Part shown: piece after piece, positions 7,513 to 40,027 of the stretch
Layout of the letters: each line of letters opens with the position of its first letter
How positions within the stretch are numbered: position 1 is the stretch's first letter
IMG/VR virus record: IMGVR_UViG_3300026510_000002
Location: 1-46,842 of that record
Reading direction: 5' to 3' (one strand)
Length of the DNA: 46,842 nt
Origin: a virus
Translations under genes and position numbers: made by a program
The notes under the pieces: model-generated
Told to the model about the DNA's origin: nothing
Databases searched by the model: none
Seen by the model: only the letters and a program-made list of their open reading frames with translations

Positions 7513-7662
7513 TTAATGTTGTCTTATTGTTTCAACCAGTTGATATGGTCGCATTCTTTCGTGAAAAGGCTTTTTGAATTCTTTCAATGCCATTTCAGTG
7601 ACTAATTTCTTTTCTTTTGGTGATAAGAAAAACCCACACCATAAGTTTTTCACTTTATTCAT
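7513..7662 (-). CDS. Hypothetical small protein (49 aa)
   Basis: The open frame starts with ATG at 7660-7662 and stops with TAA at 7513-7515. It begins MNKVKNLWCGFFLSPKEKK and ends RPYQLVETIRQH. It overlaps the end of the lipoprotein gene by 8 bases and ends 9 bases before the 711-residue gene, so it fills the gap neatly. It is basic, and its function is unknown. Confidence 0.6.
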   Translation of the reverse strand: MNKVKNLWCGFFLSPKEKKLVTEMALKEFKKPFHERMRPYQLVETIRQH

Positions 7663-8059
7663 TTATTATTTTTATTGCTGTTATCTTGAAATAAAACATA
7701 TCAGTATCATTCATGTAATCAGCCATATTTGGAAAATGACAATACCAATCACCGTCTTGACGTAATTCTGCATAAGTCAATAAACCATTTATGGAAACGG
7801 CTGGTAAATCAATGTAAATTTCAGATGATATTCTTATTTCATTTTCAAGATAACCGTGACGAATTGCAATCACTGGGTTTAACCCTTCAAATGTGTCTAA
7901 ATTCCAAGACGTTTCCCAATCACCATCGTTTATTTTTACAAGATTATCTTGACTGTCATAACTCACATTTAAAACATCTATAACTTCAAATTCACAATCA
8001 TCATCATTGTGACAAGAAAATGTTAAAATCAAAACTAAAATTAAAAGTATTTTTTTCAT
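7655..8059 (-). CDS. Surface-type lipoprotein, possible superinfection-exclusion factor
   Basis: This 134-residue protein has a lipoprotein signal peptide: MKK, a hydrophobic core, then lipobox LTFSC with Cys near residue 16. The residues after Cys (HNDDDCE) are acidic, resembling the lipoprotein export signal that sends Bacteroidetes lipoproteins to the cell surface. The rest is beta-rich with no known domain. I use the ATG at 8057-8059. A lone lipoprotein among fibre genes suggests a moron that masks a receptor, by analogy with phage exclusion lipoproteins. The lipoprotein call is firm; the role is inferred. Confidence 0.7.
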   Translation of the reverse strand: MKKILLILVLILTFSCHNDDDCEFEVIDVLNVSYDSQDNLVKINDGDWETSWNLDTFEGLNPVIAIRHGYLENEIRISSEIYIDLPAVSINGLLTYAELRQDGDWYCHFPNMADYMNDTDMFYFKITAIKIINE

Positions 8060-8079: not shown

Positions 8080-8322
8080 TTTTAAAGTGGGTGGAACTAA
8101 GCATCTCCCTAACACCTTGCGGTGCGTGGTGGGTGATGCTAATAAGCTCCCAAACTCATTGCTGAGAAAGTGGGTACCTCTAATGTCCTCCCGGTGGAGT
8201 TACCCAGAAACCCCACGAACCGAAGTAAGTGAAGTTTCTGGGCGGTTAAAAACTTATAATTAATTCATTTTTACCGAAGTAAAAATAAATTTAAAAACTC
8301 GTTTTCAACACCCACCTTAAAA
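8080..8322 (-). ncRNA. Candidate structured RNA of about 243 nt
   Basis: This is the only gap of about 300 bases between genes (8060-8379). On the minus strand the ends pair in a 14-bp closing helix (8309-8322 with 8080-8093). The inside folds into a 12-bp hairpin with a UUCG loop (8263-8290), a 14-bp hairpin with an inner UUCG loop (8203-8242) and a short CUCC/GGAG hairpin (8188-8199). A hairpin with a GCAA loop follows (8149-8174), then a two-part arm with a GCAA loop (8100-8140). Both UUCG loops are closed by C-G. The one mismatch of the closing helix becomes G-U only on the minus strand, which fixes the orientation. I do not recognise the RNA class. Confidence 0.7.
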
Positions 8323-8379: not shown

Positions 8380-9933
8380 TTAATGTTGTCGCATCACATA
8401 ACTTATGTGACGGTTCCAGCCGTCACCACTATTTGTAGATACTGCTTGCATTCTTACGAAACCTAAATATCTTGTTTCAAATTTTATTCCAGTACCAAAC
8501 GCTTCACAACGTATTCTAAAACCTAAATCAACAAATCCTGTACGTCTTACTATGGGGCCAATAAGACCAGTAAGACCGTAATTATTAACTTGCCTTTTAT
8601 TTGGTTGTACTCCTGTTGGTGATGGGAATTTATTTGTTTGGTTTACCGTTCCAAGTGGTTGAAAATAATGGTCTTGTTTAAAATCCAAAATCATTGTCGA
8701 ATTGTCAATTACAATTTCATTTATTCTATCGGTTGAATAACCACCTAAATCTGGAATAATTTCGTGTTTGTAACCCGCTTTTCTGTGACGTGTTGCTGAA
8801 CCACCTTTGTGTTCAAAACCTCGATAACGGTCAATTAACAAAGTGTACTTAACGCCTGACTGTTGTTTTTCTTTTAATACATCGAAATCTTGAAATTTAA
8901 CACTTAATAAAAAGTAATTTCCTTGAAATCTCGGTGAATAAACACTTCTATTTGTGACTGCTAAATCATCAGTATGTGATGACCAACTAAATAATAGTTG
9001 CATCAATTCAACACGACTTGCAAATGATTTGTGCATTGCAAGTAAATATTCAGAAGTATTTGTTGCTTTAAAAACTGGAAAATTCAATTTTAAATAATCA
9101 TCTGGTTGCAAAGAATTATCAATGCCAGTTGGTAAATTCGTTGCAAATTGACTTTTACTAATCAAAATAAAATCATCAGCAGTCACTGGTGTTGCAGCAG
9201 ACCCCCAAGTACCAGAACCTTTTGTGAAAAAATGTATTTGTTCATAATCATAAACATCTGCATCATTATTTTGACCTTTTGAAAAGAAAACACCTATTTC
9301 ATTATTTGATAATGTAAAAGAATTGTTTGTTCCAACTTCATAAAACATTCCCGGCCATTGTTCTTGCCAAGTAGAACCATTGTATAAATTGAAATACTTT
9401 ATTTGAACATTTGACAAAAATGATTGTGATGCTGGTGCATTCAGATTGTAGAATGAAATAATACACAATTCACTTTCATTTGGTTGATAAGCATAATTTG
9501 GATTGTCTGCAAAACCAGTAACTATGATATTGTAAACATCACCATCAACTGCATCAGTATCTGCAAGATGTGATTTGTATTGTAAATAAGTAGAACGTCC
9601 AACAAAATCTTTGAAATGAATTAGGGCACCTTCACCAAGTGTGTCAAGTATGCGACCAATATCATTTGTGTCAAGTGTCTTTTTTGCAACTGTTATGACA
9701 AAATCATTTGTGTTGTTGAATGCGTTATTATTCCAAACCAGTGTACCAGTCGGCACAATACCATTTATGGCTTCTTTTTTTGAAAGAAATGGGGCACCAG
9801 TGTATTTTCCAGATTTATTAATAAATTCAGTAAATACATTGTTGTGGTCTTGTGCCAAGATGGCACCAACTGCTGCTGCGGGGTCAATTGCTTGGTCTAA
9901 ATTAGACTTTAATTGTTTAAAATTATCTGCCAT
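8380..9933 (-). CDS. Tail-associated structural protein (517 aa)
   Basis: This protein starts MADNFKQLKSNLDQAID at the ATG 9931-9933. The first 30 residues are helical; the rest is beta-rich with many Asn and aromatic residues, ending RHISYVMRQH. It follows the 1035-residue tail protein, so it is probably a fibre, tip or side protein. I recognise no catalytic or binding motif. A diversity-generating target was considered because of the end region and the hairpins downstream, but no reverse transcriptase gene is present. Confidence 0.55.
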   Translation of the reverse strand: MADNFKQLKSNLDQAIDPAAAVGAILAQDHNNVFTEFINKSGKYTGAPFLSKKEAINGIVPTGTLVWNNNAFNNTNDFVITVAKKTLDTNDIGRILDTLGEGALIHFKDFVGRSTYLQYKSHLADTDAVDGDVYNIIVTGFADNPNYAYQPNESELCIISFYNLNAPASQSFLSNVQIKYFNLYNGSTWQEQWPGMFYEVGTNNSFTLSNNEIGVFFSKGQNNDADVYDYEQIHFFTKGSGTWGSAATPVTADDFILISKSQFATNLPTGIDNSLQPDDYLKLNFPVFKATNTSEYLLAMHKSFASRVELMQLLFSWSSHTDDLAVTNRSVYSPRFQGNYFLLSVKFQDFDVLKEKQQSGVKYTLLIDRYRGFEHKGGSATRHRKAGYKHEIIPDLGGYSTDRINEIVIDNSTMILDFKQDHYFQPLGTVNQTNKFPSPTGVQPNKRQVNNYGLTGLIGPIVRRTGFVDLGFRIRCEAFGTGIKFETRYLGFVRMQAVSTNSGDGWNRHISYVMRQH

Positions 9934-9944
9934 AATCAAATGTT

Positions 9945-28417: not shown

Positions 28418-28421
28418 GTGT

Positions 28422-28448
28422 GTGCAATTGCAGCAGTATCAATTGCAC
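28422..28448. repeat. Perfect 9-bp inverted repeat in a promoter leader
   Basis: GTGCAATTG (28422-28430) and CAATTGCAC (28440-28448) are perfect inverted copies with a 9-nt spacer. The repeat starts 2 bases after a TAATTTTG -7 element and ends 4 bases before the start of the gene at 28109. It could be an operator for a dimeric repressor, or an mRNA hairpin that blocks translation. Confidence 0.7.
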
Positions 28449-28450
28449 GA

Positions 28451-28478
28451 CAAAATTACATAAAAAAAACCAACCCAA
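28451..28478 (-). promoter_or_regulatory. Probable promoter of the 102-residue gene
   Basis: TAATTTTG (28451-28458 on the minus strand) matches TAnnTTTG, with a TTG 17 bp upstream (28476-28478) inside the preceding terminator. It is the only promoter in sight for the gene at 28109-28417. Confidence 0.5.
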
Positions 28479-28501
28479 ATCAATTGCTTGAAATGGGTTG
28501 G
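28470..28501 (-). terminator. Intrinsic terminator after the small membrane-protein genes
   Basis: CCAACCCA (28494-28501 read in minus) pairs with TGGGTTGG (28470-28477) around a 16-nt loop, then a run of T follows on the minus strand. It ends the transcripts of the genes at 28549-30533. Confidence 0.8.
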
Positions 28502-28548
28502 CTAATCTTAATCTAAAACGTTACTTTTTACCTTGTCAAATATAACAT

Positions 28549-37644: not shown

Positions 37645-37648
37645 AACT

Positions 37649-37819
37649 CTAATCTCTTATAAATTCATCAGTTACAATACTTGCTGAACCTTCCAGTATT
37701 TCAGCACGACCACATTCAACAATTGCAGTCACGTGTGGGTGATGGTTTTCTGCCAAATACTTCATAAGTGGCTTAACTACTTTTTCAAAATCACTTTTTT
37801 GTTCTTTAGTTAAAATCAT
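37649..37819 (-). CDS. Hypothetical small protein (56 aa)
   Basis: The open frame starts with ATG at 37817-37819 (MILTKEQKSDFEKVVKPLMK) and stops with TAG at 37649-37651, four bases before ssb. It ends CGRAEILEGSASIVTDEFIRD. It fills the gap precisely and is likely translated with ssb. No family recognised. Confidence 0.6.
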   Translation of the reverse strand: MILTKEQKSDFEKVVKPLMKYLAENHHPHVTAIVECGRAEILEGSASIVTDEFIRD

Positions 37820-37949
37820 TTTATTTCAATTAAATTAAATCATCGCTTTTATTAAACCCACGATGAATAAGGTCTTAAAACTTATTATTACGTTGAAATT
37901 GCATTTGATTTGCAATTTTCATTATACTTTCAGACCGTTGTATTAAACT

Positions 37950-38240
37950 TTAAATATAACTGTCCATTTCATTCTTATCGTTGGTAATATAGTACCCTTT
38001 TGATGTTGCAATCAAACATTCAATCAACACGGTTATACGAATGTGATGAATTAATTTACGAACTCAGGCACCATTTACTTTGTAACCCATATTTTTAAGT
38101 CCAGAAATCATTTGACCATTTGTGATGGCCTGGCTTTTACCAATCTTGTTTTTTAGACCTTTCACCATCAATGGAATAATTGTGAATTCTTCATAATTAT
38201 TCAATTCGTGTGTCTGGTCATCAAATCCATTAATTGCCAT
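37950..38240 (-). pseudogene. Small DNA-associated-type protein with an in-frame TGA and TAA
   Basis: The frame begins with ATG at 38238-38240 (MAINGFDDQTHELNNYEEF). It reaches TGA at 38064-38066 after NMGYKVNGA, and continues with VRKLIHHIRITVLIECLIAT and SKGYYITNDKNEMDSYI to a TAA at 37950-37952. A further in-frame run (SLIQRSESIMKIANQMQFQ) follows before a third stop. The whole resembles one conserved phage protein of the type with GYKVSGARVRKIIHHIR, so two nonsense codons interrupt it. It may be decaying or suppressed. Confidence 0.6.
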
Positions 38241-38242
38241 AA

Positions 38243-38623
38243 TTATTGTTTTGACCGTTTAACTTTTTCTTCTGCATCGTATCGTAAATGATGAAGTTGA
38301 CAAAATGCTAAAAGGCGTTCATCATCAACATCAAAATTATTTTCATCGTGGTCAAGATGTGCAATTGTTAAAACAACTTTAACTTCTTTCATACTCACAT
38401 TAAAACCATCTTCATCAAATTTCAGTTGCTGAACCATTTGTTTTGCAGCATCATAATCACGACACCAACACACCACTTTTTTCTTAACCTTAATACTCCA
38501 AACGTATTCCAAATGTTTGAAATCACAATCTTTGTGTTCACATTTATTGTCTGCACGTTTCAATATTCTTGGTCGAATTTCAGTGAGCCAGTTAGGCGGA
38601 TATTTGTCGTAATTGATTGGCAT
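38243..38623 (-). CDS. HNH endonuclease-like protein (126 aa)
   Basis: This protein starts MPINYDKYPPNWLTEIRPRIL and has DNKCEHKDCDF near residue 30. AHLDHDENN and FCQLHHLRYD lie near the end, a typical HNH arrangement. HNH nucleases often sit next to terminase or replication genes and can be homing or nicking enzymes. Catalytic His and metal ligands seem present. It overlaps the next gene by a few bases. The specific role is unknown. Confidence 0.75.
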   Translation of the reverse strand: MPINYDKYPPNWLTEIRPRILKRADNKCEHKDCDFKHLEYVWSIKVKKKVVCWCRDYDAAKQMVQQLKFDEDGFNVSMKEVKVVLTIAHLDHDENNFDVDDERLLAFCQLHHLRYDAEEKVKRSKQ

Positions 38624-38944: not shown

Positions 38945-40027
38945 TTATTTAAGCTTTGACAACCATTGGTTGTAAATTCGTGTTGCTATCTGGGCCACCA
39001 TTACTGGTGGTACCGACATACCAATTATGTATGTTGGTAAATTCTTGCCAAAATCATAATCACTTGGCCACGTTCCAGCCCTGAACAATTCATTCAAAGA
39101 CAATCCACGTTTTTCATCAAAGAGTATGTTTTTTTCTGCACCAGTAATGGTGTTGACCACTTTATGCTTGTAAATGTAGTTTACACTAAAAAAGGAATTT
39201 GGACGGTTAAAAACACGCCCCATTGTGCAACTTAAATCATTGTCACCGGCTTTTCTGTGTTCCCAAGCTTTTCCGTATGCTGGTGGTATTTTATAGACAC
39301 CAGTTTTTTGATTTGGTTCGTAAATTTCACCAAATGGTATTTCTTTCTGGTTGAAGTTCATACCAAGTTTCGGCATTGGATTGAACATATCAGTAAAATC
39401 ATCAAACTGACCAGCAAAATCCTTTCGTATTGCAACAAAAAAGACACGTTCACGTTTCTGTGGCACACCCATATCTTTTGCATTTAAAAGCCACTTTTCA
39501 ACATAATAACCAGCATCATCAAACGCCTTGCCAATTGCACCAACATATTTCTTTGCTGAGCCCATCAATAAACCTTTTACATTTTCTGCAACAACAACTT
39601 TTGGTTGTAATTCCTTTGCTAAATCAATGAAGTTAAAAAATAGTGTGTCCAGAACTTGTTTGGCTTGACCCTCTTTAAACACCTTTTCTTTGCCCCAATC
39701 ATCTTCACGATTGCCACACATAGAAAAAGAACTGCAAGGTGGTGAACCGTCAAGTATATCCAAATCATACAACTCTTCTGGTAAATCTTTTCGGTCCTTG
39801 AATGTTTCAATACTTTCAAGAAATGAATATTTTGGTTTGTGATTTGTCAAGTATGCAGACATCATTCGTTTGTCAATCTCGTTGCATCCAATTACATCAC
39901 CACCAGCCAGTTTATAACCAAATGATGAACCACCACCACAAGCAAAACACGTGAATACTTTGAATTTGTCTTTTGTGAATTCTGTATTGGCCATTGACCA
40001 AGTGTAAGGAAATTTATTTTCAATCAT
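38945..40027 (-). CDS. DNA (cytosine-5) methyltransferase
   Basis: This 360-residue C5-methyltransferase transfers a methyl group to cytosine, probably to protect phage DNA from host restriction. Motifs are in order: FTCFACGGGSSFG (I, residues 24-36), GSPPCSSFS with catalytic Cys 98 (IV), AENVKGLL (VI, about 147-154), QKRERVFFVAIRK (VIII) and IIGMSVPPVMV near the end (X). No restriction partner is nearby. The gene is first behind a leader-type promoter, with ATG one base from the leader element. Confidence 0.93.
   Translation of the reverse strand: MIENKFPYTWSMANTEFTKDKFKVFTCFACGGGSSFGYKLAGGDVIGCNEIDKRMMSAYLTNHKPKYSFLESIETFKDRKDLPEELYDLDILDGSPPCSSFSMCGNREDDWGKEKVFKEGQAKQVLDTLFFNFIDLAKELQPKVVVAENVKGLLMGSAKKYVGAIGKAFDDAGYYVEKWLLNAKDMGVPQKRERVFFVAIRKDFAGQFDDFTDMFNPMPKLGMNFNQKEIPFGEIYEPNQKTGVYKIPPAYGKAWEHRKAGDNDLSCTMGRVFNRPNSFFSVNYIYKHKVVNTITGAEKNILFDEKRGLSLNELFRAGTWPSDYDFGKNLPTYIIGMSVPPVMVAQIATRIYNQWLSKLK

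What the first reader, a model, noticed from the sequence alone, without database searches (positions are those of the whole stretch)
8080..8322. Unassigned multi-hairpin RNA of about 243 nt between fibre and lipoprotein genes
The only long intergenic gap folds on the minus strand into a structure closed by a 14-bp helix, with five further hairpins. Two UUCG tetraloops closed by C-G and two GCAA tetraloops are present. Tetraloop identity and a G-U pair in the closing helix fix the orientation. The density of stable motifs far exceeds what a terminator needs. It matches no RNA class I recognise; a function in packaging, regulation or as a host-directed RNA is open.
Basis: partly seen in the sequence, partly recalled or inferred. 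Interest (0 to 1): 0.82.

Follow-up and report, generated by a model that had tools for sequence, protein, structure and literature searches.

The report
Orphan multi-hairpin RNA in flavophage operon
Between a tail-fibre gene and a small lipoprotein gene, a Flavobacterium-type phage carries a 243-base stretch that folds far more stably than chance and contains two duplicated hairpins whose paired bases changed together, so it is very likely a genuine structured RNA, but it has no known relatives and its job is unproven.

Summary
Window 8080-8322, read on the minus strand (the strand of the flanking late genes), folds at -97.7 kcal/mol (z -9.1; 0 of 200 shuffles as good). The opposite strand scores z -3.75. 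A 14-bp helix closes five hairpins, including two C(UUCG)G and two GCAA tetraloops. 'Only long gap' is overstated.

New here: hairpins P4 and P5 are tandem duplicates (25 of 34 positions, offset 42 nt; 0 of 2000 shuffles). Four pairs changed on both sides and kept pairing, two changed on one side; sliding the partners destroys the signal. This is the only covariation evidence available, and it points to selection on RNA structure.

No homologue was found in Rfam, phages, plasmids, 62 related loci or 399 Flavobacteriales genomes. All four relatives with a gap at the same place hold different multi-hairpin sequences; three of these end in a terminator-like hairpin and a flavobacterial -7-like box.

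Best reading: an intercistronic, cis-acting hairpin module of the late mRNA that guards the fibre message's 3' end and separates it from the lipoprotein gene, perhaps processed at the long closing helix. A free trans-acting RNA is not excluded. It belongs to no family tested.

The parts
8080..8322 (-). whole structured RNA element, closed by helix P1
   Evidence: z -9.08 on the minus strand, z -3.75 on the plus strand
8309..8322 (-). P1, 5' strand UUUUAAGGUGGGUG
   Evidence: inverted repeat I2; fold
8080..8093 (-). P1, 3' strand CACCCACUUUAAAA; not followed by a U-run
   Evidence: inverted repeat I2; no terminator called here
8246..8308 (-). P2, long A/U-rich hairpin with C(UUCG)G tetraloop
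8202..8245 (-). P3, hairpin with C(UUCG)G tetraloop; shares UUACUUCGGU with P2
   Evidence: direct repeat D4
8188..8199 (-). short hairpin CUCC-ACCG-GGAG
8139..8183 (-). P4, hairpin with A.A mismatch, CCC/GGG stem and GCAA loop
   Evidence: paralogue of P5
8097..8142 (-). P5, hairpin with A.A mismatch, CCC/GGG stem and GCAA loop
   Evidence: paralogue of P4
8380..9939 (-). upstream gene, tail-fibre-like (PHROG 12000 over residues 4-192; C-terminal part not conserved)
7655..8059 (-). downstream gene, 134-aa predicted lipoprotein (signal MKKILLILVLILTFSC), no known family
   Evidence: lipobox read by eye

Best explanation
A cis-acting, intercistronic structured RNA of the phage late transcript. 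Transcription runs on the minus strand through the fibre gene, this element and the lipoprotein gene. The element folds into a long closed stem carrying UUCG- and GCAA-capped hairpins, which would block 3'-to-5' exonucleases at the end of the fibre message, insulate it from the next cistron and leave a short unstructured A/U-rich leader before the lipoprotein start codon. The long closing helix is a plausible double-strand-RNase processing site, so a trimmed stable RNA may also accumulate. Shown here: the fold, its strand bias, the hairpin duplication with compensatory changes, and hairpin arrays in the same slot of relatives. Inferred: co-transcription, protection, processing.
For: Fold z -9.08 on the coding strand against -3.75 on the other. 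P4 and P5 are tandem duplicates: 25/34 identical at offset 42, 0/2000 shuffles as good; 4 pairs changed on both sides and 2 on one side with pairing kept, and this vanishes when partners are slid. Neighbours lie on the same strand and no flavobacterial promoter TAnnTTTG was found between the fibre gene and the lipoprotein start. The four relatives with a gap in this slot hold different multi-hairpin sequences: L004 z -3.9, L007 -5.3, L009 -5.0, L079 -4.8. The three L009 hairpins share loop and linkers and covary in the stem. About 20 nt between P1 and the ATG are A/U-rich with A at -3 and -6; low structure near the start and A at -3 favour initiation in Flavobacterium (PMC6847099).
Against: No expression data. 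No true homologue, so the whole fold has no phylogenetic covariation test; P4/P5 is one pair of paralogues, and 20 of 500 two-sequence shuffles reach its score. Structured gaps also occur elsewhere in these phages, so the slot is not unique. The other phages with this fibre-like gene have no gap there, so the element is dispensable for the group. A bare 3' protector would not need 243 nt or duplicated GCAA hairpins.
Confidence: 0.5

Rival explanations
1. A stable trans-acting phage noncoding RNA, excised from the late transcript or made from its own promoter, that binds a protein (perhaps through the paired GCAA hairpins) or another RNA.
For: Elaborate closed fold with a long terminal helix, paired UUCG and GCAA hairpins and very high stability; no terminator-like tail; duplicated hairpins with a preserved A.A mismatch, internal loop and GCAA loop look like duplicated binding sites.
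Against: No homologue anywhere searched; no recognisable flavobacterial promoter; no partner protein candidate; relatives carry unrelated sequences in the slot.
Confidence: 0.25
2. A DNA-level element: remnant of a small mobile element with terminal inverted repeats, or a recombination junction that helps exchange cassettes after the fibre gene.
For: 14-bp terminal inverted repeats; the slot between the fibre gene and the next virion gene is variable, with extra genes in some relatives; the phage encodes a RecT-like annealing protein and a RusA-like resolvase.
Against: Strong strand bias and 11 G-U pairs in the folded strand point to RNA; single copy in the genome; no copies in 299 host-order genomes beyond A/T-rich chance matches; no target-site duplication seen by eye.
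Confidence: 0.12
3. A transcription attenuator, terminator or riboswitch-like leader controlling the downstream lipoprotein gene.
For: It lies directly upstream of the gene; relatives have terminator-like hairpins plus a -7-like box in this slot; MFE and P4-form folds are nearly isoenergetic, so two states are possible.
Against: No U-run after any hairpin in the window and no terminator called there; 20 nt of open sequence before the ATG; no Rfam riboswitch match even at E of 10.
Confidence: 0.1

Closest known systems
Hairpin arrays in the same slot of related Flavobacterium phages (phage 1/32 = L004 7252-7446; L007 11604-11859; L009 10341-10483; L079 3526-3625)
   Same: Same place, just after the PHROG 12000-like gene; multi-hairpin; repeated hairpins; UUCG or CUACGG loops in L004 and L007
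   Different: No sequence similarity to the window element; three of them end in a terminator-like hairpin and a -7-like box, which the window lacks
Intercistronic stabilising or RNase III-processed hairpins of phage mRNAs (general knowledge, T7 type)
   Same: Position between late cistrons and a long double-stranded stem
   Different: Much larger, multi-branched and with duplicated hairpins; processing is untested
Ornate phage RNAs GOLLD and ROOL (PMC12286853)
   Same: Phage-encoded, elaborate fold, unknown function
   Different: No Rfam match; 243 nt against more than 800 nt for many GOLLD members; not near tRNAs; found in a single genome
Retron msr-msd RNA
   Same: Long closing helix and several short stable hairpins
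   Different: No reverse transcriptase in the genome; no adjacent RT gene
Type III toxin-antitoxin RNA (ToxI type)
   Same: Tandem repeats of about 40 nt upstream of a small gene
   Different: The downstream gene encodes a predicted lipoprotein with no toxin match; repeats form hairpins rather than a known ToxI pseudoknot; no terminator between

Membership tests
Any Rfam 15 family | score above the curated gathering threshold | tested here: not met
   0 matches in the whole window; only chance-level matches with E of 2.8 or more in the region
Retron ncRNA | encoded with a reverse transcriptase | tested here: not met
   RVT_1 (PF00078) absent from the genome record, while controls ring; the record may be incomplete
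Retron ncRNA | long a1/a2 closing helix | tested here: met
   14-bp P1
Type III toxin-antitoxin RNA | adjacent ToxN/CptN/TenpN-type toxin gene | tested here: not met
   downstream 134-aa protein has no Pfam match (with a 15-residue N-terminal extension) and no PADLOC match
Type III toxin-antitoxin RNA | tandem repeats of about 35-40 nt | tested here: met
   34-nt repeat at 42-nt spacing, two copies; a third, partial copy seen by eye
GOLLD / ROOL ornate RNAs | covariance-model match | tested here: not met
Intrinsic terminator | G+C-rich stem followed by a U-run on the transcribed strand | tested here: not met
   no minus-strand terminator between 8080 and 8380
Intercistronic mRNA stability or processing element | co-transcription and altered decay or processing | not testable with these tools
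   needs RNA-seq or northern blot; same-strand neighbours and no intervening promoter motif are consistent
Mobile element with terminal inverted repeats (MITE-like) | multiple copies in phage or host genomes | tested here: not met
   single copy in the record; no copies in 299 Flavobacteriales genomes

The most novel reading that the evidence does not exclude
A new class of phage noncoding RNA, released from the late transcript as a stable multi-branched particle, whose duplicated GCAA hairpins bind a protein or dock onto another RNA. Flavobacterium phages would keep a rapidly diverging slot for such RNAs after the fibre gene.
Probability: 0.2. Interest if true: 0.75.

Novelty: new variant of a known kind. 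Interest (0 to 1): 0.42.

Why it matters
Flavobacterium phages are poorly studied at the RNA level. If the element is real in cells, it shows that the slot after the fibre-like gene collects unrelated but equally structured RNA modules that evolve by hairpin duplication with compensatory change. That could be tested directly in cultured relatives such as phage 1/32.

Tried and rejected
Sequence homologues: blastn in phages, plasmids and E. coli genomes; nhmmer and blastn on fetched loci; three 14-mer scans of viral contigs, whose matches did not extend beyond chance; 299 Flavobacteriales genomes by BLAST (43: only short matches, nearly all in the A/T-rich hairpin). Covariance model of the whole RNA on the window, 62 related loci and 100 others and on 399 genomes: nothing beyond the window. 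Model of hairpins P4/P5 on the same loci and on 399 genomes: only weak, chance-level matches. A hint that L004 might share the motif GGUUGAAAGCG with the window was dropped, because nhmmer found no alignment. Apparent matches in L066 and L069 lie in what read as coding sequence. Retron, type III toxin-antitoxin, riboswitch, tRNA and terminator readings were tested and not met. The protein-based searches for more relatives with the fibre and the 711-aa protein alone found none; alignments did.

Full report
What is there. The window is a virus record of 46842 bases that reads as a tailed phage of the Flavobacterium FpV / 1/32 / tant8-1 kind: portal, major head protein, terminase, tape measure, amidase and holin all match phage families, and its tail genes match Flavobacterium phages only. 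Nearly all genes, including those on both sides of the finding, lie on the minus strand. The gene upstream (8380-9939) resembles PHROG 12000 in its first 190 residues, and the rest is not conserved. This fits a tail-fibre or receptor-binding protein, though no curated function is attached. The gene downstream (7655-8059) encodes a 134-residue predicted lipoprotein without family matches.

Observation. The stretch 8080-8322 folds on the minus strand at -97.7 kcal/mol, z -9.08, with 0 of 200 shuffles as good; the plus strand has z -3.75. It contains the most stable 243-nt window of the genome in a scan at 60-nt steps. Eleven of 89 predicted pairs are G-U. The fold was chosen on that strand, which favours G-U there, so this count alone is not independent evidence. 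The statement that this is the only long gap depends on the ORF cut-off.

Internal duplication. The repeat finder shows two 34-nt copies 42 nt apart, 74% identical. The best ungapped self-match is 25 of 34, against a maximum of 22 in 2000 shuffles. On the RNA the shared text is GGGAG-N4-UUAG-N4-ACCCAC; a third, partial copy can be seen by eye just upstream (GGGAGGACAUUAGAGGUACCCAC). The copies make two hairpins of one architecture: outer stem, A.A mismatch, CCC/GGG, internal loop, apical stem, GCAA loop. Aligned, they show four pairs changed on both sides with pairing kept and two changed on one side; 92.9% of cells pair, against 32-46% when partners are slid by 1-3 columns. With two sequences the shuffle control is coarse (20 of 500 reach the score), and since the structure was taken from P5 the slid controls are somewhat biased. 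Still, this is the pattern expected when an RNA hairpin is duplicated and then evolves under selection for pairing. The MFE shows P4 differently, but the P5-like form is only 0.2 kcal/mol worse.

Relatives. No homologue of the sequence or fold was found. Alignments of the neighbouring tail proteins did bring in relatives. In most of these the fibre-like gene is followed at once by another gene. In the four with a gap there (phage 1/32 = L004, L007, L009, L079), the gap is filled by a different multi-hairpin sequence with z of -3.9 to -5.3 on the coding strand. L009 has three tandem hairpins with the same loop and linkers and covarying stems; L079 and L007 have two similar hairpins each. By eye, L004, L007 and L009 end in a terminator-like hairpin with a T-run, followed by a flavobacterial -7-like box (TATCTTTG or TAATTTTG; consensus in PMC6847099). 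Thus in relatives the slot looks like a transcript boundary. As a control, other gaps in the same phages were scored: several are also strongly structured and many are not. The slot is therefore consistently structured but not unique.

How it most likely works. The window lacks a U-run and lacks a TAnnTTTG box between the fibre gene and the lipoprotein gene, so the three are probably one transcript (inferred). The element would then be a cis-acting intercistronic module: it protects the 3' end of the fibre message and insulates the next cistron, whose start is preceded by about 20 unstructured A/U-rich bases with A at -3 and -6, the kind of leader that Flavobacterium ribosomes favour (PMC6847099). 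Processing within the long closing helix is plausible but untested. A trans-acting RNA remains the main rival, because 243 nt and paired, duplicated tetraloop hairpins are more than a protector needs.

Verdict. A real, strand-specific structured RNA, an orphan by every search available here, with partial covariation support. It is best seen as an unusually elaborate variant of intercistronic phage RNA structures. No family membership is claimed.

Noticed in passing
window 37645-38242, next to 38243-38623 (-): A gap of 598 nt at the 60-aa cut-off (244 nt at 35 aa) lies between a single-strand-binding protein gene and an HNH endonuclease gene; possibly a homing-endonuclease insertion.
   Followed up: no
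window 28418-28548: A 131-nt gap folding at -40.2 kcal/mol (z about -4.8 and -4.5 on the two strands) between convergent ORFs, probably a two-way terminator.
   Followed up: no
window 38945-40027 (-): DNA methyltransferase gene in the early region.
   Followed up: no
L009 10343-10413: Three tandem hairpins with identical loop (GATTTTATC) and linkers and covarying stems, just after the fibre-like gene; the last is followed by a T-run.
   Followed up: partly
L004 7252-7446 (Flavobacterium phage 1/32): Multi-branched hairpin region in the same slot of a cultured phage, ending in a strong terminator and a TATCTTTG box; a convenient laboratory model.
   Followed up: partly
slot between the fibre-like gene and the PHROG 13374-like gene in L004, L005, L007, L009, L015, L065, L079 and the window: The slot is variable: some phages carry extra genes there (L005, L015), the window carries RNA plus lipoprotein, others only hairpins; it looks like a cassette site.
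   Followed up: partly
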